Below are positions 35,996 through 58,966 of a stretch of DNA of 64,000 nt, one piece after another (the stretch's first letter is position 1; every line of letters begins with the position of its first letter). The stretch spans positions 389,229-453,228 of the forward strand of contig KV423916.1 in the NCBI GenBank assembly GCA_001632435.1. Direction: 5' to 3'. This stretch comes from Calocera cornea HHB12733. Lineage: Eukaryota; Basidiomycota; Dacrymycetes; Dacrymycetales; Dacrymycetaceae. A program made the position numbers and the translations under genes. The notes under the pieces were generated by a model that was not told where the DNA came from, did not search any database, and worked only from the letters and a program-made list of their open reading frames with translations.

Positions 35996-36583
35996 ATGGC
36001 TCCGAGAAACCCTACCGACCCCCCAAGCCCGCGTGATCACCTACCTGATACACCGAACCCACCTGCTGGTGGACCGATTGGCGATGTACCGGCTGGGGTG
36101 ATAGGTCAAGCCGTACAGTTTGTCGTACCGGTCGCGATGCCAATCGTCGCGCCTGTTCAAGTCCCCGCGCCCCCGCCCGCTCCCGCTCCGGTGCCCGTTC
36201 AAGTGCATATCATCCTCCAGAACCATCAGCTCACAGTCGTGATCCAAGCCAATGTCGGCCCCAATGATACACGCACGGCCACCGGCATGGAGAATCCCGT
36301 TCCGGTGCCCATTGATGGCCAGCCAAATGCCCCAGCACAGAACGTGAACCGTCAATACACCGGTACTCTTCAAGTCGCGGCTCCTCCCAACCTGGCCGAC
36401 TTGCAGAACAACTACGTAACCGATCTCAACTTCGTTCAGCAGGCGGCTAATCTAAGGATTATACTGTGGAATAACGGTGTCCAGGTGGGATCCATAACTG
36501 TCCAGTATGGGCCAAACGATCAGCCACTCCCGCAGGCCATTACACAGACTTGGGTGCAGCACGTGGTTTGGACGAGGAACTGA
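35996..36583 (+). CDS. Orphan-family protein with Pro-rich N-terminus
   Basis: Single-exon, 195 residues from MAPRNPTDPPSPRDH. The first 70 residues are rich in Pro, Ala and Val (APPPAPAPVPVQVH). The C-terminal 120 residues are strand-rich: HIILQNHQLTVVIQANVG, LADLQNNYVTDLNFVQQAAN, LRIILWNNGVQVGSITVQY and a closing ITQTWVQHVVWTRN. The last part follows the same pattern as the other small proteins of this region, such as the gene at 57288-57644, which ends INAEWFNKDLPVEWSPA. I place it as an outlying member of that orphan family. It has no signal peptide. The function is unknown. Confidence 0.55.
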   Translation: MAPRNPTDPPSPRDHLPDTPNPPAGGPIGDVPAGVIGQAVQFVVPVAMPIVAPVQVPAPPPAPAPVPVQVHIILQNHQLTVVIQANVGPNDTRTATGMENPVPVPIDGQPNAPAQNVNRQYTGTLQVAAPPNLADLQNNYVTDLNFVQQAANLRIILWNNGVQVGSITVQYGPNDQPLPQAITQTWVQHVVWTRN

Positions 36584-36899
36584 GATCATCGGCCGAGTCA
36601 ACTGCCGTTCCATCTGTCATATGTAGATCCCAGAGTTTCAAGATCGATAATGTGATAGGTCATGCAATTGATATCATCTCGAACCATGGTTGAAATTCGA
36701 CTCCTAACCGTGATCGCCAGAAGATCTGGCTCCGACGGTGATCTTCCCAAGATAACCCTACTCGACGTGGGCCTCTATCTCGAGATGTCAATCAATGAAA
36801 CGATACAGTTACAGCACGAGCGTACAACATCACCACTCTCTGTTAGAGAACATCAGCACAAATCGGCCAACGCGGATGGAATAGAGCATATGTACCAAC
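36584..36899. other. Short intergenic stretch
   Basis: 316 bp between convergent orphan-family genes; nothing recognised. Confidence 0.4.
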
Positions 36900-37250
36900 T
36901 CAAGGCGTCCACTTCACCTCAATTGAGTTCCCCAGTACTTCTTGCGGGAGCTCTGGCATTCCAACTTGAAGCTCGCCGACCATCCCTGCCACACGTAGCC
37001 CAGTGGGGAGGTAGAACCTGAGCCATAGGATTGGAGGCAGGGGTGATGCTGGACGCTGGTCGAAAGAGAGTATGGTGTTGAGGTTGAGGAGGTCGCTGAT
37101 AAAGGTGAGCTCCGCTTTGAACCTCAGCCGGCGGTCGGGCACGTTATACAGCTGGCGTTCGCCTTTACCGAGGAGCTCGGCGGTGGCGATCTCAACCATG
37201 ATCTTGTTGTCTCCAGTGATTATGGTGACAAATGCCTGAGTCGTTGGCAT
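36900..37250 (-). CDS. Orphan-family protein, single module
   Basis: 116 residues from MPTTQAFVTIITGDNKIMVE. The order of elements is FVTIITGDNKIMVEIATAEL, then RRLRFKAELTFISDLLNLN, then ILWLRFYLPTGLRVAGMVGE, with the end SIEVKWTP. The same order is seen in each module of the two-module proteins at 40846 and 48988. Relics of this subtype lie at 44640-44822 and 46971-47159. No known domain was recognised. It is the first of a series of minus-strand copies each followed (upstream) by a related non-coding block. Confidence 0.6.
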   Translation of the reverse strand: MPTTQAFVTIITGDNKIMVEIATAELLGKGERQLYNVPDRRLRFKAELTFISDLLNLNTILSFDQRPASPLPPILWLRFYLPTGLRVAGMVGELQVGMPELPQEVLGNSIEVKWTP

Positions 37251-38365
37251 GATGATTGGCTGGCGAACGGGTCGCAGTGCAATAACAGCAGGTTATAGCA
37301 GGATCGTACTCACCTAATGGGTGGGCAGCTCACGGTCAAGGTAGCGCGCTGTCTTGCGCGAGGATCTTCTCAAACATCTTATCGTTTTATGTTCTTGATA
37401 TTCGGCACTCTGTCGACAGTTTGGTCACCGCAAACCCTTCAGATCAGAACCTGACGACACGTGCTTCCATGCCTCAAGCAACATGCCCACGCCAGTGCCT
37501 TCTGCTCGGGTGCCACGATGCTGCATTCCATAAGGTTCGGATACCCTCAGGTGCCTTTTCAGACCGTCTTCTATGCGATTCACTGGTTGACTGTGTGCCT
37601 TAGGATGACACTTCCTTTGCGGTTTGCAAGGTTGTGACACTGATGGTGTGAAGACACGTGTGTAGCCGGAAGTTGCAACCTTGTCACGGCCAGAGTCGTT
37701 TGCGGCTCGAAGGCGCCACAGTGAAGCCATTGGATGGCGAGTGCTAATGGAGCGGGGCAATATGGTGTTGCACCTCCGGTCCTCGGAGCACTCGCCATTC
37801 GCAGAGAGTGTATGCGGCTATCGGTGCGGACCTGGCTCTAAGATTCAGGAACGGAGTTCACAGCACTTGCATATCGGGTGAGTTCGAGACATCGGCAAGC
37901 GATAGGACAATCAACACACCCAGTCGCTTCTGCAGTGCCTAGTTTTGGGGCCATTGACCCGTATTTGTGCGGTGGGAGCACATCCGCTGACTGCAACTAC
38001 ATGTCAGCATGATGTACTCTGCTCATGGAGGATGCGCCGCGTACTGCTTTCAGGAGCTGGCCGTCCCGCCCACTATGCAGTATCCGTTCTCAACCCCCAT
38101 AGCCGCATACTCCGTATTTCAGGGTGGATGTCCGCATGCTTAAATGCGTTGCTGCTGTTGCTGTCGCTGGCCGGAGGAGTTGCGGTTAGACGGTCCAGTG
38201 CTGTGTGGGTGCAGGAAGGCAAGTTCCACAAGTCTCGAGCACGCGTCACCTGAAACAGTCGCTTCGCGCTTCTCTCGCTGGCCTCGCCTAGACCGCACAG
38301 GCGTTATTTCGTCCAAAAGTCATCTTTGGCATACAAGCTATACCATAAGCATTACAATCTAGATG
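37251..38365. repeat. Upstream block, unit 0 (degenerate)
   Basis: About 1.1 kb with no gene. The part at about 37975-38110 (gcacatccgct...ctacatgtcagcatg...gaggatg) resembles 40195-40250 and 42775-42835, so it is the remnant of the block found upstream of the other tandem copies. Confidence 0.5.
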
Positions 38366-39250
38366 CTAATAAGGATCGTCTGGGGTTCCATAGTCCACCA
38401 TACGCAACCAACCCATGCCTGCCAACTGATCGATCACCGTAAGGTCGCGCGGCGTCGCGTCGACTTGTGCGACCATGTAGGCGACTGTTTTGTTGTCGCT
38501 GTGCGCCCACCTGAATGTGTAAATGGGATGCATGTTTTGGGGGAAGCGTAGTCGTGAGATACCAAGGGTGGCACCCACCAAGCTGAGCCTGTATTTAAAG
38601 CGGACTTGGCCCTTGACTTGCTACATCGACTGCCGGGTTACCAGTCCATGGACCATTGGAAGATGTGTTCATATCGGCCGTGATGATATCAAGGTGGTAT
38701 TCCTTGCTAACGTCGATCTATATCGAGATGAGGGCCTCCTCAAATATGACCTGTGTTATGTTCAATCTTCGTTAGGTTGCGCAAGATGACAACGCAGGCC
38801 AATACCTCACCTGCGGAGGTGGTGCGTGATAGAAGGACGAGTGCCGCATGTCCTGGCTCATACAATCGTGAAGCATCTCAGAGCTCTTGCCGTCAAGGCA
38901 CTCCAGAGTGGTGGGTGGCCCGACAAATCTTACACGGTTCGCAAGCACCATTCCAAGTGGGCCATCATTATCTTCGAACGTGACCCTGAAAACCCGGTCC
39001 GTGGGAGCCAATGTGTGCGATTCGCGGAGGGTGAGTGTGGTTAGCCTGCCGTCCCAGAAGTGGTGCACATCCTTGTAGAACATCATCTGCCCGAAGAGCG
39101 CAACCATCTTTCGGTCGAGCAAGGGGAGCGGTCCGAGTTAGCCCAAGCGGAAAGGTGCAGAGTATCAATCTGGACGCGGTAGGTGTGGTTGTCACTACTG
39201 CTGCTAAGCGGAGAGAGCTTCACGACAGCATTTTCGATGATCTCGTTCAT
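38366..39250 (-). pseudogene. Broken two-module orphan-family gene
   Basis: The copy starts at the ATG at 39250 (MNEIIENAVVKLSPLSSSSD), aligned with the intact MEEIIEKAVV start at 49878. After HLSAWANSD the frame is lost, and the homologous sequence continues one base out of frame as PLLDRKMVALFGQMMFYKDV. The first module still ends YHAPPPQ at a splice donor. In module two, the codon matching Trp in SIWID is TAG, and another frame change follows before LRFPQNMHPIYTFRW near the end. At least two frameshifts and one nonsense codon make this a pseudogene of the family represented by 40846-41721. No repaired sequence is implied. Confidence 0.75.
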
Positions 39251-39362
39251 ATCTGCTCAACTGCGAGTTCTGTGAGTCGAGATTAACTGAGCCGTACAGA
39301 GTCCCACTTGCCTGCTGCTAGGCGCGAATGGACAGAATCGCTTCTTATTTGCTCTATGGGGA

Positions 39363-40500
39363 ATGGGTTGTCGTTGCCGAGCAACCTACACAATGGCTGG
39401 TATTTATCTTGATACCGCAGGACGGCCGGGCCCAGCACACGGCAGGGCATGGAATTCCATGAAGACCTCAAGCACGTACGGCCGGTCATTGCAGCCAAGG
39501 GGCGGATCTACAAAGTCAGGGCACGCTAGCGTACGTCGCGCAGTACTTCCTGCTGAGCCAGCCGGAGCAAGACCATATGCCGGCACCAGAAGTGCAAGGG
39601 GCCGCAGCAACAATGCAGGGTACCTAACACATTCTCACCTCCTAGCGCCAGCTGTCTGCCGAACGGTGCTAGCGGGTTTGCCGTTTGTGGGTTCCTCAGG
39701 GTTCTGCACGGCGGAGGGGCACGCCGGGTTTTGCTTTGAGTGTTCCATTACGCGCTCGGGGTTTCACAGTCGCGCTGCATTACGAAATCGCGCATAGCAA
39801 GTGCATGTGCACTACTTCCGATGGGGGCTGATATAGATTTGTACATCCGGACATAGTGAACATCCCGAGGTCGGAGAGATGGATGGAGCGGATGACGACC
39901 ATGGAACTTGAGCCCATTGCAATTCGGCGGGGTCTGGTTGTGCGTTAGCTTAATGCTTCGCCATGGACAGGGCACAGCAAACGCACTGAGAGCCTCAAGC
40001 CGTTGACAGTTCTGAAACCAAGAACGGGCTCTCGTGCCGCAACAGCAGTGGAACAGTCTGGTGCTACGCGGGTCTACCCAGCTCCTATTCCCAAGCTCGA
40101 GCCCCATCCGGTCAGCCTGGCTGATCCATGCGCAGGTCGTCAAACGACGAAGGAGCTCGGTGCTGTTCAGACTTGATGCTTGGGAGTGCGCACATCCGCT
40201 TCAACTACAACGACTTGCTCAGTAGACATGCTCTACAGCCGGAGGATGAGTGAGCGTCATACTGCGTCTCAAGGATGAGCAGTCCCGCCCGCGAACCTCT
40301 AATCACTGTCACCCCCTAAGTCTCATATGCCCATCAAACGCCCACATGCAGTGCTGGGCTGCTGCGTTCGGCAGCCATCGAGAGTAGATACTGGGCAGAC
40401 CCCTTCTGTGTGCGTGGGTGCGGGAAGGCAAATCGTTTTCGCGCCGCGTCTGGCGTACTGTGATCCTGAGACGTCGCGTCGCGTCGTGGTCCAGCAGGCA
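39363..40500. repeat. Upstream block, unit 1
   Basis: Non-coding block shared with 41830-42990, 44945-45240, 46465-46960 and 49985-50620. Shared landmarks in order are ggcggatctac, cacgctagcgta, cgcagtacttcctgctg, cagctgtctgccga, gggtttgccgtttgtg, cagggttctgcac and gtacatccggacata. The region 40430-40475 is the element-free counterpart of the transposon insertion site at 43011. Confidence 0.65.
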
Positions 40501-40845: not shown

Positions 40846-41721
40846 CTAATTCTCACGATAGACCGTCATTGCCAACGAACCCAAGCTTTGCAGGTTGTTG
40901 ATCAGAGTGAGATCGTATGATGTGTCAACTTCAGCGGACATTACAGCGACCATTTTGTTGTCCTTCATCCATTTGAACTTGTAGATGGGTTTCAAGTTTT
41001 TGGGGAAGCTTCGCCCGAAGATCGATACAGAGGCACCGTAAAAGTCCAGCTTGTCCTTGCAGCGGAGTTCGCCCTTGAACCTCATCGCCGTATCGACTGC
41101 CGGATTTCCAGTCCATGGACCAACACAATATGACTCCATATCGGAGGTACTGATATCAAGATGGTACTGCTTGCTATCGACCCACATCGAGACAATCGCC
41201 TCTTCAATTATGACCTATGATACGTTCAACTCCCCTTAGCAAGCGCAAGATGACGTCACGAGCAAACACGAATATCTCACCTGCGGAGGTGGTGGCCGAT
41301 GCACGAACGTGTGCTCGGCGTGGTCGCCGGAAGCCTTCATGCAGGTGACCTGGCAGGTCGTACCGTTAAGGCTGTGGAGCTTGTCGTGTGGCCCGTCGAA
41401 CTGTGCATAATCCGTAATCAACAGTCCAAGGAAAGCGTCGTTTCTTTGAAAGACGATGTTGAAAGCAGGGTCCAAGTCCAACACTGAATGCAATATGGCG
41501 AAGGTAATTTTGGTTCGCGGGTCGCCGAAGAAGTGGCCGACATCCTCGTCGAACCGCATCTGCCCGAGGAGCCTAACCGGCTTTGAGTCCAGAAACCACA
41601 TATCCGATTCAATGTCGCCTTTGGCATGCAGATGTAGAGTATCGATGTGGATGCGGTAGCGCTTGTCAGAAGGACTAATCTGCTCGAGCGTCACGACGGC
41701 GTTTTCGAGGATCTCCTCCAT
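40846..41721 (-). CDS. Two-module orphan-family protein
   Basis: Exons are 41721-41281 and 41214-40846, summing in frame to 269 residues. Module one (exon 1) starts MEEILENAVVTLEQISPSDK and runs through YRIHIDTLHLH, RLLGQMRFDEDVGHFFGD, LDPAFNIVFQRNDAFLGLLI and HRPPPPQ. Module two (exon 2) starts VIIEEAIVSMWVDSKQYHLD and runs through GPWTGNPAVDTAMRFKGELR, FPKNLKPIYKFKWMKDNKMV and LTLINNLQSLG to VYREN. The two modules follow the same pattern, so the gene arose by internal duplication with one module per exon. There is no signal peptide or membrane segment. Function is unknown; the strand-rich pattern suggests a small soluble beta fold. It is intact. Confidence 0.75.
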
Positions 41722-41829
41722 GCTTGCTCAACTGCAAACTCTGTAAGTGGAGCACAACTGACTGGGCGTCTCACTTGCCTGCTGATCTTCGGATGCGCAA
41801 AAACGCTGCTTCTCTGCTGCCCCAGGAGA

Positions 41830-42990
41830 TGGGCTGTTATTGTCGAGCAGCCTACCGAATGGCTGCTTTTTATCTTGAAATCGCAAGACAGCCGGGCGCC
41901 AGCACACCGCCGGGCAAGAGACTCGATTAAGACCGCGCTCATGACCTTCCGATCATTGAGGCCACGGTGCGGATCTAGCACCCGCCGGACACACTAGCGT
42001 GCGTTTAGCGGTGCTTCCTGAAGACCACAATCACCTCCTTCGGGTCATCGAAGCCAAGGGGCGGATCCAGCAAATACCGGGCAAGATGGCGTGGGTTGCG
42101 CAGTAAGTACTTCCTGCTGGCCCAGTCGGAGCTAGAGCGAATGCCGATGTCACAGGGATGCGGGACCGCGGCAGGCATACATACATGTGACTCTTCTTGA
42201 CCTCCCAGGGCCAGCTGTCTGCCGAGTGGTGCCAGCGGGTTTGCCATTTGTGAACTCGTCAGGGTGAGGGACGGCGGAGCGTCCAGCGCTAGTCCCGTTA
42301 TGAGCGCTTCGTTCGGCATTCGGATTTGCATAGTCGCGCGGCATTACGAAAGCTGCATAGCAAGAGCATGTTCGCAAGTCTCGATTGGAGGTGATACGGC
42401 TTTGTACATCGGCACATCATGAACATGCGGAAGCCGAAGAGATGCAAGGACCGGATGATGGTCGCGGAGCTCGCGGCCATTGCAGTCTCCCAGAAAAGGA
42501 TAGTGACATCGGGCTCTGACTGTGCGTCAGCTTGATGCTTTACGATGGACCGGACACAACCAACGCACTGTGATCCTATGTATGCTGCTGGCAGATCAGG
42601 TACGGCAACAACAGTGCCAAGCCGGTCCACCGCTGTTGCCATGCCGTTCCACTCAATACCTACTCTCGAATCTCATACTGGATGGACTGTCGTCCAGTCC
42701 ACCTGGATCACCGTACGCAGGTCGCCCACCGGTGAGAAGGATAGCTCGGTACTGACAGACTTGAATCGTAGGAGCGCGCACATCCGCTCCAACTACAATG
42801 ACATGTCAGCATGCATGCTCCGTGGATAGAGGATGAGCCTCATACTGTAAAGCGTCTCAGGGCCGGGCAGTCCAGCACACAACCCACTAACCACTCTCAT
42901 ACCCTTCAGCCTCATATGCCCAGCTCTTTGAAACCAAACGTTCGCACGAAAACTGGGTTGCCATCGTATCCGAAAGTAGTTGGTGCTCAG
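41830..42990. repeat. Upstream block, unit 2
   Basis: Matches the other blocks; 41865-42000 is nearly identical to 50027-50160 (ttatcttgaaatcgcaa...cactagcgtg), indicating recent duplication or gene conversion between units 2 and 5. The block lies directly 5' of the gene starting at 41721 and presumably includes its promoter. It is interrupted on the right by the transposon at 43022. Confidence 0.65.
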
Positions 42991-43021
42991 CAGTCCTCTT
43001 CATGCTTGGGTGGAGCGCGCC

Positions 43022-43090
43022 ACCAAGCCGTCCTAAAAACCAGGGTCCCCCCAGGAGGGGTATTTCCTGCGTCAACCCCAATGTCCTTGA
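43022..43090 (+). repeat. Left terminal inverted repeat
   Basis: Begins accaagccgtcctaaaaacc and pairs imperfectly with the right end. Shared landmarks are GTCCTAA, AGGAGGGGT/AGAGAGGGGT, and ACCCCAATGT/ACCCTAATGT. Confidence 0.65.
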
Positions 43091-44199
43091 AGGGGGTGGG
43101 GTACAGCACAACTGTGTTGTACCCCCGGCTGTAGCCCCTTCTCAGTCTAAATTAGCCCATTTTACATATTGTCCAAGTAGTCTTTATACTAAACAGAGCC
43201 TCACATATGCTCCTACAAGCTCCATTAGCAGTTCTAGTAATAGAAAACCCACTTATACCACTGCACAGCCGCAAAAATGGTGCTGTACCCCCTTTTCTGG
43301 GCCAAATCACCTTCTTTTTGCTTGTAAAATGCATGGGAACATGCCCTGGTATCTTCTTAATCATTCCACCAAGCCATAGAGTGGTTCAAGTTGGGGGAAG
43401 GTGCCGCTTTGCTGCTCATTTGGGGGTAGGGTTTAGCTGAGAATATAGTGTATCCTTATTCTATTTCTACAAACATTATGCCTCATTCAAATTGGCTGGA
43501 AATTGGTGTACATACTGTCCATATAGTACCCAGTCTTCCATTCAAAATTTGTGTAATTTCATAAGTTGGAAAGTTTTGGGTATATGGCCAACATTAAAAG
43601 CAACAACAAATTGTACCCTTTACCATAGTATCATTTGTCTATTCATAAGCAATCACTTCCTACTTATATATCTTTCCCAATTTCTCAAATCTGCTTTATA
43701 TATGTCTAAATATGATTCCTCTCAAGTAGCAAGTCAATCCATACAGCCATTAATATTATATTACTCATTTGCTATTCAGGGTACTATAGGGCCTAACAAG
43801 ACATACATACTCCAACTATAGCGGCATGTGCAACACATTTCTACCTAATCAAATCTATCTGGAAAAGACGTTTGGACCTCTGACTGATGAGATCCTATGC
43901 AATAGCACTGATATAAGCATTGAAAGGCAGTACAGCAGGGGCTGCAGCAGTATATCAGCACATGTTTTGAGAAAATAGAGGCCTTCCCACGGTTAAATAT
44001 CCTTTATTTTTTGCCTCAATCATAACAGAGGGGTCCTAAACACATTGCCAGTATCTAATATACAAGTAGAATAATAGAATTATGTGATTGCAGGGCTGCA
44101 GCAATGCTGCTTTTATTATAGGGGCCCTGCATTTCCGGCCCCTAGCCCATTTTTCCACTGGCTGACGGATCGCTGCAGCAGGGCCCTGTGGCTGTGACC

Positions 44200-44266: not shown

Positions 44267-44639
44267 TGGAGCGCGCCGCCTCCCAGGTGCTCACGTGATC
44301 CTGAGACAGACGCGTCGCGCACCCGTCGCGCACTACTGTATCCGATGAGCTGCTCAATGTCTCACCAATGTCCAATGATCAAGCTATCGTCCTCTCACAA
44401 ACGCCTCCCTTCTGAAAACATCAATCCTATCCTCCAGCGAGGATGAGAAAATGTGCCTACATAAATTGAGCATCAAGGTACTCACTATATTGCCCAGCAC
44501 AGGTTGTGGTTGTGCTTCCCTGCTTAATATCCCTGCCATATGGATCCTAGTGGGCAGGTGTGATGTGGGTCATAGGATTGTAGACAGGCAAAATGCCGGA
44601 TGTTGATTGAGAGCACGTGTAGTGTCAAGGCGTGGGACA

Positions 44640-44822
44640 TCACTGATAGAGCCGAGGCCATTTGGGTACACTACACACCTGGCATTCGCCTGTAGCCAGG
44701 AGTGCAGCGGTGACAATTTGGACCTTGATCTTGTTGTTGTCGGTCACTATGACCATAAGGAGCAGATCTAGGGTACTTCTCATGTTGATGCAGAAGCATA
44801 CTTGCCTGCTAATTCTCTGCAT
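44640..44822 (-). pseudogene. Relic of an orphan-family module
   Basis: About 60 codons containing VIVTDNNKIKVQIVTAALLA and GECQVCSVP, matching IITGDNKIMVEIATAELLGK and GERQLYNVP of the gene at 36900. Nothing recognisable follows, so this is a truncated copy belonging to unit 3. Confidence 0.55.
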
Positions 44823-45240: not shown

Positions 45241-45334
45241 CTATGCCGGGCAATTGACAAATCGCGCATGCTGTAACGCATTATGAATAACTGAAATCTC
45301 GCATCGCGAGGGGCAGAATGCCCAGAAGAACAGG

Positions 45335-45730
45335 TCACAGTGGCACCATCATATCTCGGCCCATAACCATGGGCACATTTGCGAAATGGTCGAGGATGTT
45401 GCCATTGTCGCTCGTGTTTAGGTCTCCGATCAGTATGGCCGTGGGATGTTCGCCGTGCCTGAACGTGATCTTGATGACCGGATCCAGCATCCCCGAAAAG
45501 CGAGACACTGTGATTGTTGCGAGGCTATCAAGTAGATCGGAAACGTCCTTGTAGCGGATATGCCCATTGACGCGGTATGCCTGAGCCTTCGGTGGACTCG
45601 TAAACCCCATCGCATAATAGGGGTGACCGCATGAAAGCTCGACCTCGGGAGTCTGAATGTTAAACTCAAACCGGGCGACATCGGCACGGAACAAAATGGA
45701 TACGATCGCTGGTCTGACGACGTAGGCCAT
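45335..45730 (-). CDS. Orphan-family protein, divergent single module
   Basis: 131 residues from the ATG at 45730 (MAYVVRPAIVSILFRADVAR). It follows the module order: PAIVSILFRADVARFEFNIQ, AYRVNGHIRYKDVSDLLDSL, LDPVIKITFRHGEHPTAILI and a C-terminal tail ending GRDMMVPL. The GHIRYKDV and LDPVIKITF segments correspond to GQMRFDEDV and LDPAFNIVF in the gene at 41721. The true end may involve another exon. Function is unknown. Confidence 0.55.
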   Translation of the reverse strand: MAYVVRPAIVSILFRADVARFEFNIQTPEVELSCGHPYYAMGFTSPPKAQAYRVNGHIRYKDVSDLLDSLATITVSRFSGMLDPVIKITFRHGEHPTAILIGDLNTSDNGNILDHFANVPMVMGRDMMVPL

Positions 45731-46464: not shown

Positions 46465-46960
46465 CACTTCCGATCATTAGAGTTCTGCGGCGGATCTAAC
46501 GAAAGCCGAACACACTAGCGTGAGATGCGCAGCACTTCCTGCTTCGCACTCGGAGCCAGAGCAGATACCGGTGGGAGTACGCGAGGCTTGAAGGATAAGA
46601 CGACGCCTTCTCCGCCTTCTTTCGACAGCCATGTGCCGAGAATTCCAGCGAATTCTCTAGTTTTAGGTTCTTCAGGGTTCTGCACTGCAGAGCGCCAAGC
46701 GCCGGCCCGAGTTCCGGCGTGCCGTTCGGCAACCGGGTTTAAGCAGTTGCGCGGCACTACGAAGCCGCACAGTGTTCACGATTTTCGGCCGGCAGGGGAG
46801 AAGGGGGGGGGTGCCTGTACACATCCGGGCATACATAGCGAACAGCCCGAGGTCGGAGACAGGCAAGGACCGGATGACGGCGATGGTGATCCCAAGACCT
46901 GAGCTGGCTTACATCCTCTGTGAGCTTGATGCTTCTGTATCTATATGGAAGAACGAACGC
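46465..46960. repeat. Upstream block, unit 4
   Basis: Shares cactagcgtgagatgcgcag, cttcctgcttcgca, cggagccagagcag, ttcagggttctgcac and acatccgggcatacat with the other units. Confidence 0.6.
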
Positions 46961-46970: not shown

Positions 46971-47159
46971 CTACGCAGCTGGGTGTTCGGGCAACGAGAA
47001 GCGGGCGTTTGCGCGGCGACAGGAGTGGAGCCGCCTGAACCTCATTCGGCGCTCGGGCACATGCTGCAGCTCGTGTTCGCGCTTCCTACACAGATCAGCG
47101 GTGATCGTCTCTACCACAGTAATGTTCTTCCCAGTGAGGAATGGTGGTTGCAAACCCAT
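46971..47159 (-). pseudogene. Relic of an orphan-family module
   Basis: The frame contains TGKNITVVETITADLCRKRE and HELQHVPERRMRFR, matching TGDNKIMVEIATAELLGKGE and RQLYNVPDRRLRF of the gene at 36900. The rest of the module is missing. Confidence 0.5.
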
Positions 47160-47479: not shown

Positions 47480-48587
47480 CTACGCCGCACTCTCTTCCTC
47501 CTGCTCCAGAATCTCCCACCCAAGCCTCTCCCGCTCCGCCTTCCTCATCCGCGCCAACGTCACACTCTCGTAGTCGAGCCCCGCGCTGTTGAAGCCGAAG
47601 CTCGGCATCGTAGTACTAGTTGTCGTCTGATCCGGCTAGAACATCCAAATAAGTCAGCGTGTTTCTATCATTGCACTCAACAGCGAGAGAAAGAGAAAGG
47701 GACAGACGCACCATCTTCGGCGCTTCCGCCAAGGCCTTAGGAACCCACGTCGGCTCCCCAGCAGCCCACTCAACCCTAACGCCCTCCAGCCCCAAGTCTC
47801 TCCGTCCCCAGCCTGGCTCGCAGCCAGCGCGCCCCTCTTGCTCAGGAGCTGGACGACCGCCGTCCCTCCCTTCTTCTCCTTCTCCTTTTTGCCAGGCTTT
47901 GGGGGCTTAGGCGGGCGGAGGAGGAGGGGGCTGGGGTCCAGGGGTCCCAGTTTGGACAGGGAGGCGAGGAGTTCGGCGGCGCTCGGCCGGGGGTGAGGCG
48001 AAGGAGAAGGGTGAGCTCCAGGGGGGTCCACGTTGCCCCCCTCCTATCCCAACCCAGCAGCAGCAGGAGCAGCAGCAGCCTCCCGCCTCCTAGCGAGCTC
48101 CTCAGCCTCCCGCTCCTTCGGCTCGCGCATCATCCGCCCCTCGCGCTTGATCCGCTCCTCCTCCTCCCGCCTCCTGCGCTCCTCCCAAGCACTCTCCGCC
48201 ATACTACGCTTAGCGGCCCGCGCGGCCGCCTCGAGCTCTTCGAGCAACGCACGCTTCTTGCTGGAGGTGGCTGCGAGCTGGGAGGCGCGCACGCGAGCCG
48301 CGCGAGGAGGGAGGCGTTGAGTGCTGCGCGCTTGAGCGGGTCTTTGAGGAGTGCGTAGGCTTGGGTTAGAGCGTGGAGTAGGGCGGACGCTTCGGGTGAG
48401 GGGTTCTATGTATGCTGCGCAGTCAGCATACATCCTCGATCATCATGGTAAGAAGGGGAAACGCACCTTGTCGGGATGCACCCCTTAGGCTCGTCTGCCG
48501 GTACGCCTTGAGGATCTGCTCGTCCGTGCTCTCGGGCCCGACGGCTAGGAGCTCGTAGGCGTCCTGTTCTTGCGCGGGGTCGGCCAT
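47480..48587 (-). pseudogene. Frameshifted duplicate of the DNAJC17-type DnaJ gene
   Basis: This is a second copy of the gene at 51100-52222. It starts MADPAQEQDAYELLAVGPES at the same position, but one extra base just before the HPD motif (within 48481-48484) shifts the frame, so the J-domain catalytic HPD is not read. Further single-base changes break the frame after the segment matching LNASLLAR, before the Leu/Pro-rich middle part, and again after ALAASQAG. The splice donor and acceptor are still recognisable. The similarity extends upstream to about 48731, matching 52383, and then stops sharply where an orphan-family unit begins. Confidence 0.85.
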
Positions 48588-48987
48588 CCTGCCAGTTTGT
48601 GTCGTGCCGGATTAGCAAAGGAGGGGGGAAGCAGGGTGTATGCCACAGTAGTGTACAGTGGTCGTCCAACAAAGCCAGCGGCTAATGCGCTCGCAGTCAT
48701 CGCGCCCATTCCTGACACCTAGTGGCGGTAGTGTGCGTAGAGTGCGTGGTAGGGAGCTCAAGGTTGGCCTGCCAGCGAGTGCCTTCCCCGCCGGACTCAG
48801 ATCCGTCCCCCGATCCGCGATCGCAGGCTGACCGGTGCCCCCACAGCTTGAGCAGTAGGCTTTCTGCTCGACTGCAACGAGGCACCTTGCTTAAATGTCG
48901 TCCCCACCCAAATAACATTCAAAATCGAAACACAAGCTCTCCTCCCTTGTACTTACATGCAATACCGCCAGAAGTACAGCGCAGATA

Positions 48988-49878
48988 CTACCAAAAAGAG
49001 ACTGAGGTACGCAACTCACCCAAGCTTACCAAGTTGTCGATCACAGTCAGCTGAAGTCTCGCGTCGAGTTCTGCGACCATCGTAGCGACCGTTTGCTTCT
49101 CTTTGAACCATCTGAACACATAAATGGGATTCAAGTTCTTGGGGAATTGTTGGGCGGATAAGCTAAGACTGGCATCCTTGAAGTTGAGCTTGTTTTCGAA
49201 GCGGACCTCGCCTCTGAACCTTAGCACCGTATCGACTGCCGGGTTCCCAGTCCATGGACCAGTACAGATCGTATCCATGTCTGCAGTGGTGATATCTAGA
49301 TGATATTGCTTGTCGTCGTCGATCCATATCGACACAAGCGCCTCCTGAATGATCTGTGTCACGTACAATCCCCGTTAGTTTGCGCGAGATGACCACACAG
49401 GTCGACACGAATACCTTACCTGCGGAGATGGTGTAGGCTGAGGTGGTGTGGAAGGAGATGGTGCGGGACGCGTAAACTTGTGCTCGAGGTGGTTGTCGCG
49501 GGCCTTATAGCAAAGCATCTCACAACTCTTGAGGTCAAGGAGGTTGAGGTTGACGGTTGGCCCATCAAACTGTACATGGTCCGCAAGCATCATTCCAAGT
49601 GGAATATTATCCTTTTCGAACGTGATCTTGAAAACCGGGTCCGTCTCAGTCGTTGTTTGCGCTCGGTGCAGGGTGACTTTCGGGTTACGGAAGCGTTCCA
49701 CATCCTCGTCGAACAGCATCTGCCCGAGGAATCTAACCGTCTTTCCGCCGAGGAAAGGCAGTGGCCCAATACGTTCCCAGCCGGACAGATGCAGTGTGTC
49801 GATGTAGAGGGTGTAGTCCTGAGAACCGTTAAAACTCGGAGCGAGCACTACGACAGCCTTTTCGATGATCTCCTCCAT
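48988..49878 (-). CDS. Two-module orphan-family protein
   Basis: Exon 1 is 49878-49420 (MEEIIEKAVVVLAPSFNGSQ to a Pro-rich hinge ending PTPSPQ) and exon 2 is 49353-48988 (IIQEALVSIWIDDDKQYHLD to LRTSVSFW). The two keep frame, giving about 274 residues. Module one has YIDTLHLSG, VRFLGQMLFDEDVERF, TDPVFKITFEKDNIPLGMML and HVQFDGP. Module two has ITTADMDTICTGPWTGNPAV, LRFRGEVRFENKLNF, LNPIYVFRWFKEKQTVATMV and LTVIDNLVSLG. It is intact and the closest relative of the gene at 40846, with a longer proline hinge (PAPSPSTPPQPTPSPQ). Function is unknown. Confidence 0.75.
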
Positions 49879-49984
49879 ATTGGATTAACTACGAATAATG
49901 TTAGTCGCGATGGACTGAGCCGTACAGTGCTGCACTTGCCTGATGATGTGCTCAGATGCGCAGAAATGTTTCTTATCTGCTCTC

Positions 49985-50620
49985 TGGGAGGATGGGCTGT
50001 CGTTGTCAAGTAGTCTACCCGATGACTGCTAGTTATCTTGAAATCGCAATACAGTCGGGCACCAGCACACCGCCGGGCAAGAGACTCGAGAAGACCGCAA
50101 TCATGTCCTTCCGATCATTGAGGCCATGGTGCGGATCTAGCATCCGCCGGGCACACTAGCGTGAGATTGGCGGTGCTTCTTGAAGACCACAGTCACTTCC
50201 TTCCGGTCATCGAAGCCAAAGGGCGGATCTAGCAAACGCCGGTCGCACTAGCCAAAAACGCAATGCTTCCTGCTTCGAAGACGCAGCCAGGGCAAACACC
50301 GGTACCAGGGGTACGAGGACCCGCAGAAAGATCGAAGGGACACTTAACGGCTTCTTCGCCTTCCTGTGCCAGCCGTGTGCCGAGCGGTGCCAGCGGGCTT
50401 ACCATTTGTGGCCTCTCCAGGGTCCTGCACCCCGGAGGGGGCAAGCGCCTGTTTTCAGCGCCGCGTTAGGCGTTCGGGTTTGCACAGTCGCGCAGCATCA
50501 CGAACGCAGCATACCAACTACATCTTCGCGGCTTCGATTGAAGCCGATATGGATTTGTATATCCGGACGTAATGGACATGCCAAGGTCGGAGGGATCAAG
50601 GGCCCGGATGACAGCCTTCG
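49985..50620. repeat. Upstream block, unit 5
   Basis: Best match is unit 2. It lies directly 5' of the gene starting at 49878. On the plus strand 50366-50572 is open, but the matching stretch in unit 2 is interrupted, so coding is unlikely. Confidence 0.65.
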
Positions 50621-51099: not shown

Positions 51100-52222
51100 C
51101 TAGTCCCCTCCCTCTTGCTCCAAAATCTCCCGCTCAAGCCTCTCCCGCTCCGCCTTCCTCATCCGCGCCAGCGTCACACTCTCATAATCCAGCCCGGCGC
51201 TGTCGAAGCCGAAGCTCGGCATCGTCGTCGGCGTTGTCGGCATTGTAGAACTAGTTGTCGTCTGCTCCGGCTAGAACATCCCAAATAAGTCAGCATGGTT
51301 CTATCATGGCCCTCAACAGAGAGAGAATGAGAACGAGAAAGGCGAGACTCACCATCTTCGGCGTTTCTGAGAGCACTTTTCGCACCCACTCAGGCTCCCC
51401 AGCAGCCCACTCGATCCTCACGCCCTCCAGCCCCAAGTCTCTCCGTCCCCCCGCCTGGCTCGCAGCCAGCGCGCCCTTCTTGCTGAGAAACTGGACAACG
51501 GCTGTCCCTCCCTTCTTCTCCTTCTCCCTTTTGCCAGGCTTTGGGGGCTTAGACGGGCGGAATAGGAGGGAGCTGGCGTCCAGGGGTCCTAGTTTGGAGA
51601 GGGAGGCGAGGAGGTCGGCGGCGCTCGGCGGGGGGTGGGGCAGGCGGAGGAGGAGGGTGAGCTCTAGGGGGTCCACTTTCGCCCCCTCCTCTCCCAGCCC
51701 AGTAGCAGCCGCAGCCGCAGCCTCCCGCCTCCTAGCGAGCTTCTCAGCCTCCCGCTCCTTCCGCTCGCGCATCATCCGCCCCTCAAGCTTGATCCGCTCC
51801 TCCTCCTCCCGCCTCCGTCTCTCCTCCTGCGCCGTCTCCGTCTTGCTCCGCTTAGCGGCCCGCTCGGCCGCCTCGAGCTCTTCGAGTAGAGCACGCTTCT
51901 TGCTGGAGGCGGCGGCGAGCTGCGAGGCGCGCGCGCGGCGGGCGAGGAGGGAGGCGTTGAGTGCTGCGCGCTGGAGTGGGTCTTGCAGGAGGGCGTAGGC
52001 TTGGGTGAGGGCGTGGAACAGCGCGGACGCTTCGGGCGAGGGGTTCTATGCTGATCAGTCAGCACACATCCTGGATCATCATGGCAAGAAGGGGGAGCGC
52101 ACCTTGTCCGGATGGACGCGCAGGCTCGTCTGCCGGTACGCCTTGCGGATCTGCTCGTCCGTGCTCTCGGGCCCGACGCCCAAGAGCTCATAGGCGTCCT
52201 GCTCCTGCGCGGGGTCGGCCAT
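51100..52222 (-). CDS. DNAJC17/Cwf23-type DnaJ-RRM protein
   Basis: Exons are 52222-52103, 52045-51353 and 51270-51100, summing in frame to 327 residues. The J domain starts at the N-terminus (YELLGVGPESTDEQIRKAYR) with an intact HPD (SLRVHPDKNPSPEASALF). A long basic and acidic coiled coil follows (SSKKRALLEELEAAERAAKR and the RRREEEERIK region). An RRM-like part comes next (GTAVVQFLSKKGALAASQAG, LEGVRIEWAAGEP). The C-terminus is SAGLDYESVTLARMRKAERE to ILEQEGGD. J domain, coiled coil and RRM in this order is the DNAJC17/Cwf23 arrangement, a spliceosome-associated factor. It is the working copy of the pair; the other is at 47480-48587. It is divergent from the Polo-like kinase gene. Confidence 0.85.
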
Positions 52223-52805
52223 CGTGTGTAGCGTAGGCGGATACCAGCAGAAAGGGGTTTGGGGGGGAGAAGCCGGGTATATGCTACAGCAGTAGTAGTA
52301 GTGTACAGCGGTCGTCCAAGAAAGTCAGTGCGGGCAATGGGCTCGCAGTCATCGCGCACATTGCTGACACCTAGTGGCGGTGCCCCCCGCCCCGGAGGCA
52401 ATCCCCCCAAACGGGCGGTTGATATCCGCTCACGTGACCGTCTGCACGACGCGCCGCGCTGAGTCGTGGGGGCGCTCGGGGGGCCTTGCGGCGGACGCGT
52501 GTTTTTGAGGGAGCGCGGGGGGGACAGCCACGGCGGATCGGATCAGCGCAACCTCACAGCAGCGGGCGTTTCACACGTCTGCTTGTTGGCTGTCACCGCT
52601 CCTGCTGTCGCTGTCACTGCCCTTGTCGAGCTTTGCTCGTGTGCGATCCTCCCTCCGACTGGACGACGAGCGGCTCCCCTGGGTTGTCGGCCTGCACTCG
52701 GCATACAGCGACTCTTGTCGGCACCACCCGCACCACCCTCGCCTCCAACACCCCTCCCCACTCCCCCACTCCCCCAACCACCCCCCGCCCCCCTCCCAGC
52801 ACACG
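52223..52805. promoter_or_regulatory. Divergent DnaJ-Polo kinase intergenic region
   Basis: 583 bp between divergent start codons. The left part matches the upstream of the DnaJ pseudogene; the right part has a long C-rich pyrimidine tract (52735-52800) immediately before the kinase ATG. Confidence 0.45.
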
Positions 52806-55800
52806 ATGTCCGCCTCCGTCCTCCCCCTCTCCCGCGCACCCAGCGTCCCCGCCCTAACAAGGTACACCTCCAAGCCCCGCATGGCGCCGCTCTCCTCCGC
52901 CCCTCCCCCACCTCCCAAGCCCTCCAGCCCTCCCCCGCCCGTGCCGTCCAAGGACGACCCAGCCGCTGCGCCAGCCCCGCACCGCGAGAAGGAGAAGGAG
53001 AAGGAGCGCGAGCGCAAGCACAAAAGCAAGGCCGACTTCCGCGACCCGCCAAGGCTCGTCATCGACAAGCAGGGCGGGCAGCAGTACACCGTCCTGTCCG
53101 TCCTCGGGCAAGGCGGGTTCGCGCGGGTGTACGAGGCACGCGACGGGCAGGGGAAGGCCCTTGCCCTCAAGGTGATCAACAAGGGCAAGCTGGCGGATAC
53201 GAAAGCCAAGACGCGGGTGCGTTGTTCTTCTTTGGCCCGTTTCGGCACGATGGTGGAGCAGAGATGCTCATGTGGTGCGGACAGCTGTATGCCGAGATCA
53301 AGATCCACCGCGCGCTGAACCACCCACACGTGTGCGCCTTCGGAGACTGCTTCGAGGACGCCGACAACGTGTACATCACGCTCGAACTATGTCGCGCAGG
53401 GGTACGTCCCTCCTCTACTGCCCCTCCTGCTCGACCGCTGACCCCACCCCCCTCCCCCCGCCTGCAGTCCCTAATGGACTTTGTGCGCAAACGCGCACGC
53501 CTGTCCGAGCCCGAGGTCCGCCTCTACATGGTCCAGCTCGCGGGGGCGATCCTGTACCTGCACACGCACCAGATCATCCACCGCGACCTGAAGCTCGGCA
53601 ACCTCTTCCTCGACGACCGGCTCGAGCTGAAAGTGGGTGATTTCGGCTTGGCCGCCTTGTTGGAGAGGGAAGGGGAGCGGAAGACGACGATCTGCGGGAC
53701 GCCGAATTACATTGCGCCCGAGGTGCTGTTTGCGAGCAAGACACATGGGCATAGTTATGAGGTCGATATTTGGAGTATGGGCGTGATCATGTGCGTCCTT
53801 TTCCCTCACTTGTTCTCGTCCCCTCGCCCCGCTCGGCCTTGGGCTTGGGATCGGCCTTGGGATTATGTTGTGCTGCGGAAATGGTGCTGAACGGCCGCCT
53901 GCAGGTTCACGATGCTCACGGGGAAGCCGCCGTTCCAGACGGACAAGGTGGAGGACATCTACAGGCGCATACGCGACAGCAAGTACGAGTTTCCCACGAC
54001 GTTCGACATCTCCCCGAGCGCGAAGAACCTTGTGCAGAAGCTTCTTTCGCAGAAACCAGGTGCGCGTTCTTGAAAGCTAACGTACGGAACAGTGCTGATG
54101 ATTGGTGATCTTGTTTGCCATTGTTGTTGCATGTAGAGGACCGCCCCAACCCGCAGAACCTGCTCTCGCACCCCTTCTTTACAGAAGGCCACGTCCCCGC
54201 GTGGATGTCGCAGGTCTCTCGCACCTCCGCGCCCAACTTCACCCCCTCCGAGGCGCTCAAAGCGCCCGCGAACCTCAAGGCCCTGCGCAAGCGCGCGCAG
54301 ATCGACGACGTGGGCGGTATCCGCGTCCGGCGCGAGGGCGTCCTCGCCGCTTCCTCGGGCCCGAACGGCGCGAGCAATGCCCAGCAGAACGCGGCGAACG
54401 CGGCGCGCGCGTGGGAGGACGGGGAGCGCGAGTTCGAGAAGGCCGTCAATGTCGGCTCGCCCATCTCGGCGCTGCTCAGGAGCGCCAAGCAGCCTCTGGT
54501 CGTTACAGGCGAGCCGGTTCCGGAGAACCTCATGCGCAAGCTCTCTGTGCAGTCGTTTGCGCCTAAGCGTCCCCAGCAGCAGCAGACCTCCCCGGCCAAG
54601 AGCACCGTCTCGCGTACCTCCGCCCGCACTGCCCGCCCAGCAACTGGCACGGGGCTACAGAAGGTCTCAGAAGAGGAGCTGCGCGGCTCGCGCGCGGCGC
54701 CCAAGCCGACCGCCGCCCTGCGCCGCACGAGAGAGCCGGGCAACTCGGAGAACGTCCCGCCCTCCGCGAGCGGGGGGTTGACCGCCTCCACGCGCACGCG
54801 CCCGGCCGCGTCTGCCTCGGCGCGCAGTGGGCTGCCGGTGCTGAGCCGCGGGCCGAGCCTGACGAGTCTGCACCGGGAGCGGTCGGCGAAGGAGCTTCCT
54901 ACTGACGCGGCTGCGGCTGCGGCTGCGGCTGCGGCGGAGAGGGAGAATGCGTTTGACGCGACGGCACGGACGCTGAACGAGGCGTTTGAGGCGAAGGCCC
55001 ATGGGAGAGTGTGGCGCGAGCCGGGTACGTTGCGTTTGCCCTGTGTGTTCTTTGGAGCTGTGGGGCTGAAGCTGGCTGGACAGCGGTTGACGCGAAATTG
55101 CCTGGGAAGGTCGTGTTCGTGCAGAGCTGGGTTGACTACAGCCATAAGTATGGCATGGGGTATGCGCTCACGGACGGGACGACCGGCGTGTACTTCAACG
55201 ATAGCAGCTCGCTGGTGCTCGCCCCGGACAATGAGTAAGCTTTTGTCGTTGGACGATAGGATATATCTAACGGTGGATAGGCACTTTGACTTCGTAACGC
55301 TCACAACGGACCACCGGCAGTACTCGCGCTCCTCGCGGCTCGTCAGCACGTTCCCCGACTCGGGATCCTCCTCTGGCTTCCCCAAGATGTCCTCCACCTC
55401 GCCCGTCACGTCCAGCAGCAGCGACAGCTCGACCGACCTCAGCACTAAGGTCACCCTCCTCCGCGCGTTCAAGGAGTACATCTACAAGGAGCTCTACCGC
55501 AAGCAGGCGTACACGTACGTGGACATGGACAAGCAAGACGGGATGGACTTTGTCCAGAAGTGGCTCAGGGCAAACAACGTCGTCATGTTCAAGCTGAGCA
55601 ATGATGCCATCCAGGTATGCTCAACCGGTGTTGAACTGAGATCGATGCTAACGCGCTGGCTAGTTCAACTACTCGGATCATACCAAGATCATCCTCTCCA
55701 GCTTGGGCAAGCACGTCACGTATGTCGACAAGAACTATAATCTGCACGAGTACACTCTTGCTCAGCTCATGACCACCGCCCTCGCGCCGCTCAGCAGCAA

Positions 55801-55966
55801 GACGGACGAGGAAGTGCGCAACAACGAGCGTCTGCTCAAGCGCCTCCGCTACTGCCGAGAAGTGCTCAACACGATGCACAAGCGGAACCTGAGCAAGGAG
55901 GAGGGCGGCATCCAGATCGTGACCTCCGGCAGCACGGGCCCTGGCAAGACGGCAGGCCTGCGGTAG
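52806..55966 (+). CDS. Polo-like kinase (Plk1/Cdc5 family)
   Basis: Mitotic Ser/Thr kinase. A Pro/Ser- and Lys-rich N-terminal tail (MSASVLPLSRAPSVPALTRY) precedes the kinase domain. The kinase has a glycine loop with Ala (VLGQGGFARVYEA), the Lys in ALALKVINKG, HRDLKLGNLFLDD, VGDFGLAAL, activation segment RKTTICGTPNYIAPE, and YEVDIWSMGV. A linker rich in Ala, Arg and Ser includes an Ala run near 54908-54938. Polo box 1 has FVQSWVDYSHKYGMGYALTD with the conserved Trp. Polo box 2 has VVMFKLSNDAIQFNYSDHTK, with the His-x-Lys pincer that binds phosphopeptides. The end is GSTGPGKTAGLR, stop at 55964. About seven introns. Confidence 0.96.
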
Positions 55967-56166: not shown

Positions 56167-56574
56167 TCATGGATCTGATAGATCTCCCCACCGCCTCGGT
56201 GGACGAAACTCCGGAGGCTCCCTTGCCCACCGGAACCGCATCTCGAACGACTTGTCGATAAGCTCCACAGGGACATCAGCCTGGAATCCGCACAGGATTT
56301 CAGCTACGACCTCGTTCGCATCGTCCATGAAGAGGAAATGGACAGTGGTATGTGATTCGGATGACCTCGTAATGATCCCCGTCAGGCGCCGGTCCACCAT
56401 GTCTTGCCATCCGGTGAACCTGAGCTCGCCAAGGAACCAGAACATGACTGTGAAGTTTCCCTCCCGTGGGACAAAGATAGCGCTGAAGCCGTGGTAGACC
56501 GAATTGCTGATTTCAATCTCAAGCCAGTCCGCGTCGCGTATCAGCTCAATCTCAACCCGCTCTACGATGTGCAT
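56167..56574 (-). CDS. Small orphan-family protein
   Basis: 135 residues from MHIVERVEIELIRDADWLEI. The order is ERVEIELIRDADWLEIEISN, GELRFTGWQDMVDRRLTGII, HTTVHFLFMDDANEVVAEIL and the end FEMRFRWAREPPEFRPPRRW. The LT-x-n-V-x-F-x-F-x-D-x-x-N-x-x-x-AEI pattern matches the genes at 57288 and 58586 and, more loosely, the modules of the tandem array. No signal peptide. Function unknown. Confidence 0.6.
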   Translation of the reverse strand: MHIVERVEIELIRDADWLEIEISNSVYHGFSAIFVPREGNFTVMFWFLGELRFTGWQDMVDRRLTGIITRSSESHTTVHFLFMDDANEVVAEILCGFQADVPVELIDKSFEMRFRWAREPPEFRPPRRWGDLSDP

Positions 56575-57287: not shown

Positions 57288-57644
57288 TTACGCTGGCGAC
57301 CACTCTACGGGGAGGTCTTTGTTGAACCACTCCGCATTGATTGCAACCGCAGGGACAAAGACGATCTCAGCGAAACGGTTATTGGTGTCGAGATCGAAGA
57401 AGTCGAACCGGACAAGGTTAGGCGCATTACCTTGCATAATGCGGAGCTTAGTAAGCTGATGGTGGTCAAATTGGTCGTATTTGAGGTTGAAAGGCCCTCC
57501 AGCGAAATGGTTGTTAGGGAACCCGATGACGGTCTGTCCGCCATTGCCGTTAACCTCTTGACCCCTGATCTGAATGGTAAGACGTCCGTTGTTTGCTTCT
57601 AGATCAATGTGAACATCCTCATTGAGGCTTTCTTCGAGGACCAT
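57288..57644 (-). CDS. Small orphan-family protein
   Basis: 118 residues from the ATG at 57644 (MVLEESLNEDVHIDLEANNG). The sequence then runs RLTIQIRGQEVNGNGGQTVI, GFPNNHFAGGPFNLKYDQFD, LTKLRIMQGNAPNLVRFDFF, NNRFAEIVFVPAVAINAEWF and ends LPVEWSPA. It is closely related to the plus-strand gene at 58586, which ends DLPVAWSPV. An upstream in-frame hydrophobic stretch (RQVLFFAVVFLGSSPP) has no ATG nearby and is probably untranslated. Function unknown. Confidence 0.65.
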   Translation of the reverse strand: MVLEESLNEDVHIDLEANNGRLTIQIRGQEVNGNGGQTVIGFPNNHFAGGPFNLKYDQFDHHQLTKLRIMQGNAPNLVRFDFFDLDTNNRFAEIVFVPAVAINAEWFNKDLPVEWSPA

Positions 57645-58585
57645 ATTAACTAAATCCGGAGGAGATGAGCCCAGGAACACAACCGCGAAAAACAAAACCT
57701 GCCTGATAGGGAGGAGTGATGCGAGTGTAGAAGGAGGTGTGTTGTTTGGAAGTGCTGCTGGAAAGTGCTGGTCCTCCGGAGCTCCAGTACTTATACAGAC
57801 CAGCCGGACGCGGATGGTTACACAAATCAGTCCAACTTCCAACCAGTGGAACATGGTCCCAACGTCCGTGAGCTTCGGCAATCTACACAAGGGAGATTAG
57901 CGACTGGTGCCAATTATAATGGCAAGTTGGGCGGCAAAGAGGAACGGGTATCTCTTGCGGCCTCCAAGGGTGCTCTGTAGCTCATCCATGCAAGCTGTGT
58001 GATCACCGCAGGGGTAAATGCGGAGCTACTGTGTTGTGCCACGGCATATGCGGTCGCATACCATACAACTTCATCTCTCGTCCCAAGGTGTGGTGGCTGC
58101 GGAGGCGGCCGGGTGCTCTTGATCTGTCGTGCCGGCCGCAACATCAGTAGCTCTATCAGCAGTATGACCCTCTCAGCCATGGTCTCCTGACGTCAAGCAC
58201 CAGACCGCGACTCCAAGTTGCAGCGTTCGCTTGCATGCAACAGATAGAAGTAAACATTGGAAGATTGTCCGCATTGTGGATAGACACTGGAGTCATGTTC
58301 CGTCCGCACATTCCCGCATTTGATATTGGTTCGTGGTCGCCAAACTATGGATTTGCTCAAGGTCGGCTACAAAGCCGAACGTAGGTGGTATGTTGGAGGT
58401 CTAGGGCAATTTGGCCACTGGGCTGCTGATATAAATCCTGGCCCTCTGCGCGGATCCCCACCTCTCAACCAACCCCTCCAGTGGCCTCAAGAAGCCATAT
58501 ACTATAATCAAGCACCAAAAACGTATCAGGCAAGAAGTGATCTTTATGCTTATGCACTCAAGCTGACACGCTGATTACAGTCAAT
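57645..58585. other. Divergent region between two related small genes
   Basis: About 940 bp between head-to-head paralogues. The bases around both start codons are similar (GTYAATATGGTC). A ctgattacag sequence just before 58586 looks like an intron acceptor, so an upstream non-coding exon is possible. Confidence 0.4.
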
Positions 58586-58966
58586 ATGGTCAATGAAAAA
58601 CCATTTCCCAACAGTTCTGGTGTGATCATCGATCTCAATGCCAGGGCTACTCAGTGCACCATTGAGCTCACCACTGTCACCGCGCTCGTCAATGGCCACT
58701 GTGCGAAACAGATCCCCGGTATGCCTGACAACCGGTTCTTTCAGCAGCCACCGGTGACTCTCAAATATGATCACCTTGACAACATAAACACCACTCTCCG
58801 AATCAAGAAAGGTAACTATGCACCTGGTGAAGATGAGACGGTTCGGTTTGACTTTTACGATGGGCACAGCAACCTTCACATTGCCGAGATCGTCTTCAAA
58901 CCTAACACTCCCATCAACCCAGCTTGGTACGACAAGGACCTCCCGGTGGCGTGGTCCCCGGTTTAG
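58586..58966 (+). CDS. Small orphan-family protein
   Basis: 126 residues from MVNEKPFPNSSGVIIDLNAR. The order is CTIELTTVTALVNGHCAKQI, GMPDNRFFQQPPVTLKYDHL, NTTLRIKKGNYAPGEDETVR, DFYDGHSNLHIAEIVFKPNT, INPAWYDKDLPVAWSPV. About half of its positions match the gene at 57288-57644, to which it is head-to-head. It is intact and has no signal peptide. Function unknown. Confidence 0.7.
   Translation: MVNEKPFPNSSGVIIDLNARATQCTIELTTVTALVNGHCAKQIPGMPDNRFFQQPPVTLKYDHLDNINTTLRIKKGNYAPGEDETVRFDFYDGHSNLHIAEIVFKPNTPINPAWYDKDLPVAWSPV

What the first reader, a model, noticed from the sequence alone, without database searches (positions are those of the whole stretch)
35996..58966. Locally expanded family of small unknown proteins, several with two modules
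At least six apparently intact genes (35996, 36900, 40846, 48988, 57288, 58586), two likely ones (45335, 56167), one clear pseudogene (38366) and two relics (44640, 46971) share one order of elements. The order is an opening strand with a charged turn, an R-F-x-G-x-x-x-F segment, a LDP-x-F-K-I-x-F-like strand, an A-x-x-x-D/E strand, and often a closing W. In 40846 and 48988 two such modules lie one per exon. I recognise no known domain. A lineage-specific, fast-evolving tandem family with live and dead copies is the pattern expected of genes in a conflict or recognition role, but no function is shown.
Basis: partly seen in the sequence, partly recalled or inferred. Interest (0 to 1): 0.75.

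Follow-up and report, generated by a model that had tools for sequence, protein, structure and literature searches.

The report
Fungal family with bacterial Vap fold
A cluster of fast-changing small genes in what looks like a fungal genome is predicted to make tiny protein barrels of the same unusual shape as the Vap virulence proteins of the bacterium Rhodococcus equi, sometimes two barrels in one protein; what they do is untested.

The parts
36900..37250 (-). single-module gene, 116 aa, intronless; bridges the two branches of the family
   Evidence: open frame; leave-out profile reached by 0 of 1000 shuffles; aligns to both branches
38366..39250 (-). two-module pseudogene (block A copy)
   Evidence: matches the 48988 protein in both modules with stops inside and frame changes
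41281..41721 (-). two-module gene 40846, exon 1 = first module plus short proline-rich linker
   Evidence: 66-nt GT...AG intron 41215-41280; profile test reached by 18 of 1000 shuffles
40846..41214 (-). two-module gene 40846, exon 2 = second module
   Evidence: profile test reached by 0 of 1000 shuffles
44483..44759 (-). relic of a 36900-type module
   Evidence: weak matches, E 0.045 and 0.066, one stop; 88-nt repeat family D11
45335..45730 (-). single-module gene, 131 aa
   Evidence: open frame; profile test reached by 0 of 1000 shuffles
47031..47141 (-). relic of a 36900-type module
   Evidence: E 0.0027, 37 residues
49420..49878 (-). two-module gene 48988, exon 1 = first module plus proline-rich linker
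   Evidence: profile test reached by 0 of 1000 shuffles
48988..49353 (-). two-module gene 48988, exon 2 = second module; this module was modelled (pLDDT 91.6)
   Evidence: profile test reached by 0 of 1000 shuffles
56167..56574 (-). single-module gene, 135 aa
   Evidence: open frame; profile test reached by 0 of 1000 shuffles
57288..57644 (-). single-module gene, 118 aa, second branch
   Evidence: open frame; 47% identical to 58586; by itself not significant against the other branch (117 of 1000 shuffles)
58586..58966 (+). single-module gene, 126 aa, second branch; modelled at low confidence (pLDDT 60.5)
   Evidence: profile test reached by 7 of 1000 shuffles
41722..42930 (-). upstream DNA duplicated with the genes (block B; partners 39251-40340 in block A and 49879-50620 in block E); CAAGATAA stands 156-162 nt before the start codon in all three
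35996..36583 (+). candidate member with proline-rich N-terminus, 195 aa; membership not supported by sequence, structure not tested
   Evidence: 78 of 1000 shuffles score as well; hhalign E 0.12-0.67; best other match in the genome E 0.06

Best explanation
This is a local, tandemly duplicated family (fungal by inference) of small proteins, apparently without signal peptides, built from one or two copies of an eight-stranded beta-barrel of the Vap type (the fold of Rhodococcus equi VapB, VapD and VapG). Shown by computation: family relationship, module-per-exon architecture, duplication with upstream DNA, one pseudogene, frame-keeping gaps, fast divergence. Strongly suggested by models: the Vap fold, most firmly for the branch of 48988. 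Inferred, and the weakest step (about 0.3 on its own): the barrels act in the cytosol as binding proteins that meet a lipid membrane or another non-self surface, in a recognition or defence task (for instance against animals that eat the fungus or against competitors), which would explain copy turnover and fast change. Two-barrel members would bind with two sites.
Confidence: 0.55

Rival explanations
1. The barrel is Vap-like by convergence only: an unrelated orphan family that reached a similar eight-stranded barrel, so nothing about Vap function carries over.
For: No sequence signal to PF05526 or to Vap chains in the PDB; Vap-type glycines absent.
Against: The Vap strand order was described as unusual or not observed before when solved (PMC4089522, PMC4118825), and both models single it out in VIA-align with a gap to other barrels. 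A review states that Vap homologues occur in bacteria of different phyla and even fungi (PMC6852188, passage).
Confidence: 0.3
2. A lineage-specific family in birth-and-death drift under weak constraint, with no conflict role; fast change is relaxed selection.
For: dN/dS 0.59 (0.40-0.82) over the two-module pair; by module 0.489/0.619 in the first and 0.330/0.789 in the second (NG86); one pseudogene and two relics among ten copies in the window; one paralogue elsewhere.
Against: Six of 6 exon gaps keep the frame and splice sites and frames are intact after about 0.3-0.4 changes per upstream site; for 57288/58586 dS (2.67, saturated) exceeds dN (0.47).
Confidence: 0.35
3. Acquired from a virus or bacterium and then amplified in this genome.
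For: Foldseek against viral models gives one strong hit, an uncharacterised 121-aa protein of lymphocystis disease virus-China (E 2.5e-4, probability 1.00, TM 0.64); the Vap review proposes horizontal acquisition of the ancestor gene.
Against: No relative confirmed by tblastn in viral contigs (alignment of three members; 48988 second module), in bacterial and archaeal contigs (the same three) or in phages (58586); these reach close relatives only. A spliceosomal-type intron lies in the two-module genes.
Confidence: 0.12
4. Barrel acting as an enzyme inhibitor or small-molecule carrier, like lysozyme inhibitors, avidins or lipocalins.
For: Lower-ranked structural neighbours include lipocalins, fatty-acid-binding proteins and avidin-like chains; such neighbours are also discussed for VapB.
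Confidence: 0.15

Closest known systems
Vap family of Rhodococcus equi (VapA, VapB, VapD, VapG; Pfam PF05526)
   Same: Predicted eight-stranded barrel with a helix between strands 4 and 5 and a nearly full-length structural alignment; tryptophan near the end of most members; a local multigene family with pseudogenes, as described for vap genes (PMC6852188 and PMC11703076, passages).
   Different: No detectable sequence similarity; no clear signal peptide and no glycine-rich last strand; two-barrel members with one barrel per exon; extra helix before strand 8.
Vap-like single-copy proteins of other bacteria (and, by a review, fungi)
   Same: Whittingham et al. report homologues without recognisable signal peptides (PMC4118825, passage).
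   Different: Those keep 27-42% identity to the R. equi Vaps and the glycine-rich end followed by tryptophan, and appear as single genes; ours is a sequence-divergent tandem family.
Cytoplasmic fungal defence proteins against nematodes (lectins, cytoplasmic lipases)
   Same: Fungal proteins located in the cytoplasm (PMC10512399, abstract and passages); ours also lack a clear signal peptide.
   Different: Activities were shown for them; nothing is tested here. That their folds differ is recalled.
COG5400 beta-barrel-like protein of Brucella abortus (PDB 5uc0)

Membership tests
R. equi Vap family (PF05526) | matches the family's sequence profile | tested here: not met
   PF05526 listed for 0 of 11 members at E<=10, within HMMER's filters; no match in the whole genome at E<=10, though no control genome rang either, so that search is weak; no Vap chain among PDB sequence matches up to E 10
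R. equi Vap family (PF05526) | eight-stranded antiparallel barrel with helix between strands 4 and 5 | tested here: met
R. equi Vap family (PF05526) | strand order 4-1-2-3-8-5-6-7 | tested here: inconclusive
   model coordinates were not at hand to read strand pairing; the near full-length alignment only implies it
R. equi Vap family (PF05526) | glycine-rich last strand ('bald' patch) | tested here: not met
   glycine 3-8% and at most one glycine in the last 12 residues of each of the ten frames examined, likewise the C133 protein
R. equi Vap family (PF05526) | tryptophan in the C-terminal strand | tested here: inconclusive
   near the end of 36900, 48988, 56167, 57288, 58586 and the C133 protein; missing at the end of 40846 and 45335
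R. equi Vap family (PF05526) | signal peptide and disordered N-terminus (R. equi members) | tested here: inconclusive
   only Kyte-Doolittle windows were computed: no 19-residue window above 1.35 (1.75 in 35996), but ten-residue windows up to 2.16 near the N-terminus; no signal-peptide predictor was run; homologues in other bacteria lack signals
R. equi Vap family (PF05526) | binds or permeabilises membranes | not testable with these tools
   needs protein; shown for VapA in the literature
Cytoplasmic fungal defence proteins | toxicity to a fungivore or induction by it | not testable with these tools
   no expression or assay data at hand

The most novel reading that the evidence does not exclude
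Fungi carry a hidden, sequence-unrecognisable branch of the Vap superfamily, which here has been turned into a rapidly turning-over arsenal of single- and double-barrel cytosolic proteins, so that a fold known as a bacterial tool for disarming phagocytes also serves in fungal conflict with animals, competitors or viruses.
Probability: 0.2. Interest if true: 0.8.

Novelty: new variant of a known kind. Interest (0 to 1): 0.55.

Why it matters
The Vap strand order was described as unusual or unique, and a 2019 review still called the exact mechanism of VapA unknown, although later work points to membrane permeabilisation. A tandem eukaryotic family with the same predicted barrel, including natural two-barrel versions, would give an independent system in which to ask what the barrel binds, and would show that Vap-like proteins can be missed by sequence searches.

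Tried and rejected
Known domains: Pfam, NCBIfam (best E 0.13), PHROGs (best 0.015), PADLOC (best 0.033) gave only weak matches, in the alignment scans each to 1 of 11 members; PDB sequence searches gave nothing better than E 0.95. Relatives elsewhere: 5.8 billion proteins returned only two proteins of this window for the profile (2 at E<=1 among 673 candidates) and one for the two-module protein (1 at E<=10 among 538). As a positive control the splicing-factor 3B-3-like gene at 19497-20537 returned 735 proteins at E<=1e-10 among 5212 candidates, the best 74% identical over its length, so other eukaryotic, in part fungal, proteins are in that database, but no near relative of this organism shows. 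The first search could not return proteins over about 220 aa. All these searches need short shared words, so fast-changing relatives can be missed.

Gene-artefact idea rejected: codon-position G+C against flat upstream DNA, frame-keeping gaps, conserved splice junctions. A first pairwise alignment with loose gap costs gave many short exon gaps of mixed length; I used the MAFFT block alignment instead, where 6 of 6 exon gaps are multiples of three. The loose result counts against over-trusting that figure. Positive selection over the whole 40846/48988 pair is not supported. Upstream identity includes one 179-column stretch at 89%, perhaps gene conversion; without it the upstream difference is 0.31-0.32, near the exons. 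dS for 57288/58586 is saturated and YN00 failed there.

Genome searches used 48988, 58586, 35996, the C133 protein and 36900 as queries; 40846, 45335, 56167 and 57288 were not used. Matches not counted as members: C112 at E 3.5, C54 and C1 at E 0.06 and 0.12 to 35996.

Not achieved: a profile-profile comparison with PF05526, because I had no Vap-family sequences; a structure for 35996 or for whole two-module proteins; naming the organism. Papers: searches listed no paper devoted to fungal Vap proteins; the paper behind the review's remark on fungi was not held.
Full report
WHERE IT IS. The window is positions 389229-453228 of contig C3 of a 32.1-Mb, 302-contig genome; C3 is 453,228 bases long, so the window's right end is the contig's end. 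G+C is 55%.

IS THE FAMILY THERE? All-against-all comparison gives two groups: the modules of 40846/48988 with 45335, and 57288 with 58586. Leave-out profiles with 1000 shuffles per query are reached by 0 of 1000 for 36900, 45335, 56167, both second modules and the first module of 48988; by 18 for the first module of 40846, 7 for 58586, 5 for the C133 copy and 117 for 57288. Profile-profile comparison ties the 57288/58586/C133 group to 36900 along 97 columns (E 3.7e-5), and to the rest plus 36900 along 103 columns (E 3.8e-4); without 36900 it is only 42 columns at E 0.026. So 36900 is the bridge. Gene 35996 fails (78 of 1000; hhalign E 0.12-0.67), although its pattern looks similar by eye.

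HOW MANY COPIES. Searching the whole genome with 48988, 58586, the C133 protein, 36900 and 35996 found this locus and one gene on C133 (89534-89890, 119 aa, 38% identical to 58586), about 0.5 kb from a gene of the major royal jelly protein family (Pfam MRJP). Other matches were weak (E 0.06 or worse). A profile search of the genome was not accepted, so distant copies may be missed.

ARCHITECTURE. The two-module genes have one module per exon, a proline-rich linker at the end of exon 1, and a 66-nt phase-0 intron with GT...AG ends. The pseudogene keeps the same junction. In a tree of 10 modules the two first modules form a clade with support 100/99, the only starred one of 7 inner branches; this fits a fusion before the duplication.

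DUPLICATION AND RATE. Blocks A (38.3-40.3 kb), B (40.8-42.9 kb) and E (48.9-50.6 kb) align over the gene and its upstream DNA, A and B over about 1.1-1.2 kb, E over about 0.7 kb. A CAAGATAA element stands 161, 156 and 162 nt before the start codons of A, B and E. Between B and E, identity is 271/429 in exon 1, 248/363 in exon 2, 46/66 in the intron, 538/733 upstream and 56/81 downstream. The upstream figure contains 179 columns at 89%; without them it is close to 69%. Exon gaps are 3, 9, 30, 3, 3, 3; upstream gaps are multiples of three in 1 of 10, one of the ten (463) being an alignment end. dN 0.42, dS 0.70, median bootstrap ratio 0.59 with 0.40-0.82 (300 replicates); first module 0.489/0.619, second 0.330/0.789; 57288/58586 0.474/2.67, saturated. 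The proteins change almost as fast as non-coding DNA while frames are kept. That fits weak constraint or a mix of constraint and diversification; it does not show positive selection.

WHAT THE LITERATURE SAYS. PMC4089522 (passages) and PMC4118825 (passages and section 15): Vap barrels have strand order 4-1-2-3-8-5-6-7, unusual or not seen before, with a helix between strands 4 and 5 and a core tryptophan near the end; homologues in other bacteria appear as single genes without recognisable signal peptides. PMC6852188 (passages): vap genes multiplied from one ancestor, and homologues occur in bacteria of different phyla 'and even fungi'. PMC10903876 and PMC10100859 (passages): VapA interacts with membranes, binds phosphatidic-acid liposomes and permeabilises membranes. 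My searches listed no paper devoted to fungal Vap proteins; the library lacks most subscription journals, and the paper the review cites for fungi was not held.

READING. Fold: Vap type, about 0.85 for the branch of 48988, less for the other. Homology to Vaps: likely but unproven, because the sequence tests failed and the glycine signature is absent. Location: no long hydrophobic stretch (19-residue windows at most 1.35, or 1.75 in 35996), but short ones near the N-terminus and no dedicated predictor run, so a cytosolic protein is likely, not shown. Cytoplasmic fungal proteins are a known defence class against nematodes (PMC10512399, abstract and passages). I put recognition or defence at about 0.3 and drift at about 0.35.

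VERDICT. A real, unusual local gene family, correctly spotted from raw sequence apart from 35996. It is best read as a sequence-divergent, partly two-barrel variant of the Vap kind rather than a new kind, with an open function.

Noticed in passing
47494-48729 and 51108-52381: A neighbouring unrelated gene is also duplicated (83% identity), flanking the 48988 block; one copy keeps a 251-codon frame, the other looks frame-broken. Pfam gives only a weak DnaJ hint (E 0.17).
   Followed up: partly
41929-42112 and 50090-50252: A repeated stretch of roughly 70-90 nt lies upstream of the two-module genes, twice in blocks B and E, with a further copy at 46467-46541; the B/E stretch is 89% identical over 179 columns, above its surroundings, suggesting gene conversion or a regulatory element.
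   Followed up: partly
BFVD Q677V4 (not in window): An uncharacterised 121-aa protein of lymphocystis disease virus-China appears to share this barrel (Foldseek E 2.5e-4).
   Followed up: no
52463-55966: Polo-like kinase gene: Pkinase domain and POLO box.
   Followed up: no
L011 (C133:88034-91390): The one family member found outside the window sits about 0.5 kb from a major royal jelly protein-type gene and 2.2 kb from a contig end.
   Followed up: partly
3-959 and 6690-8036: Two similar open frames on opposite strands, with the same kind of start (MLRFRSQ...), look like paralogous F-box-type genes (impression from the translation; Pfam gave none for the second).
   Followed up: no
43001-44000: A G+C-poor island (0.416, against 0.55 overall) between copies of the family, perhaps an insertion.
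   Followed up: no
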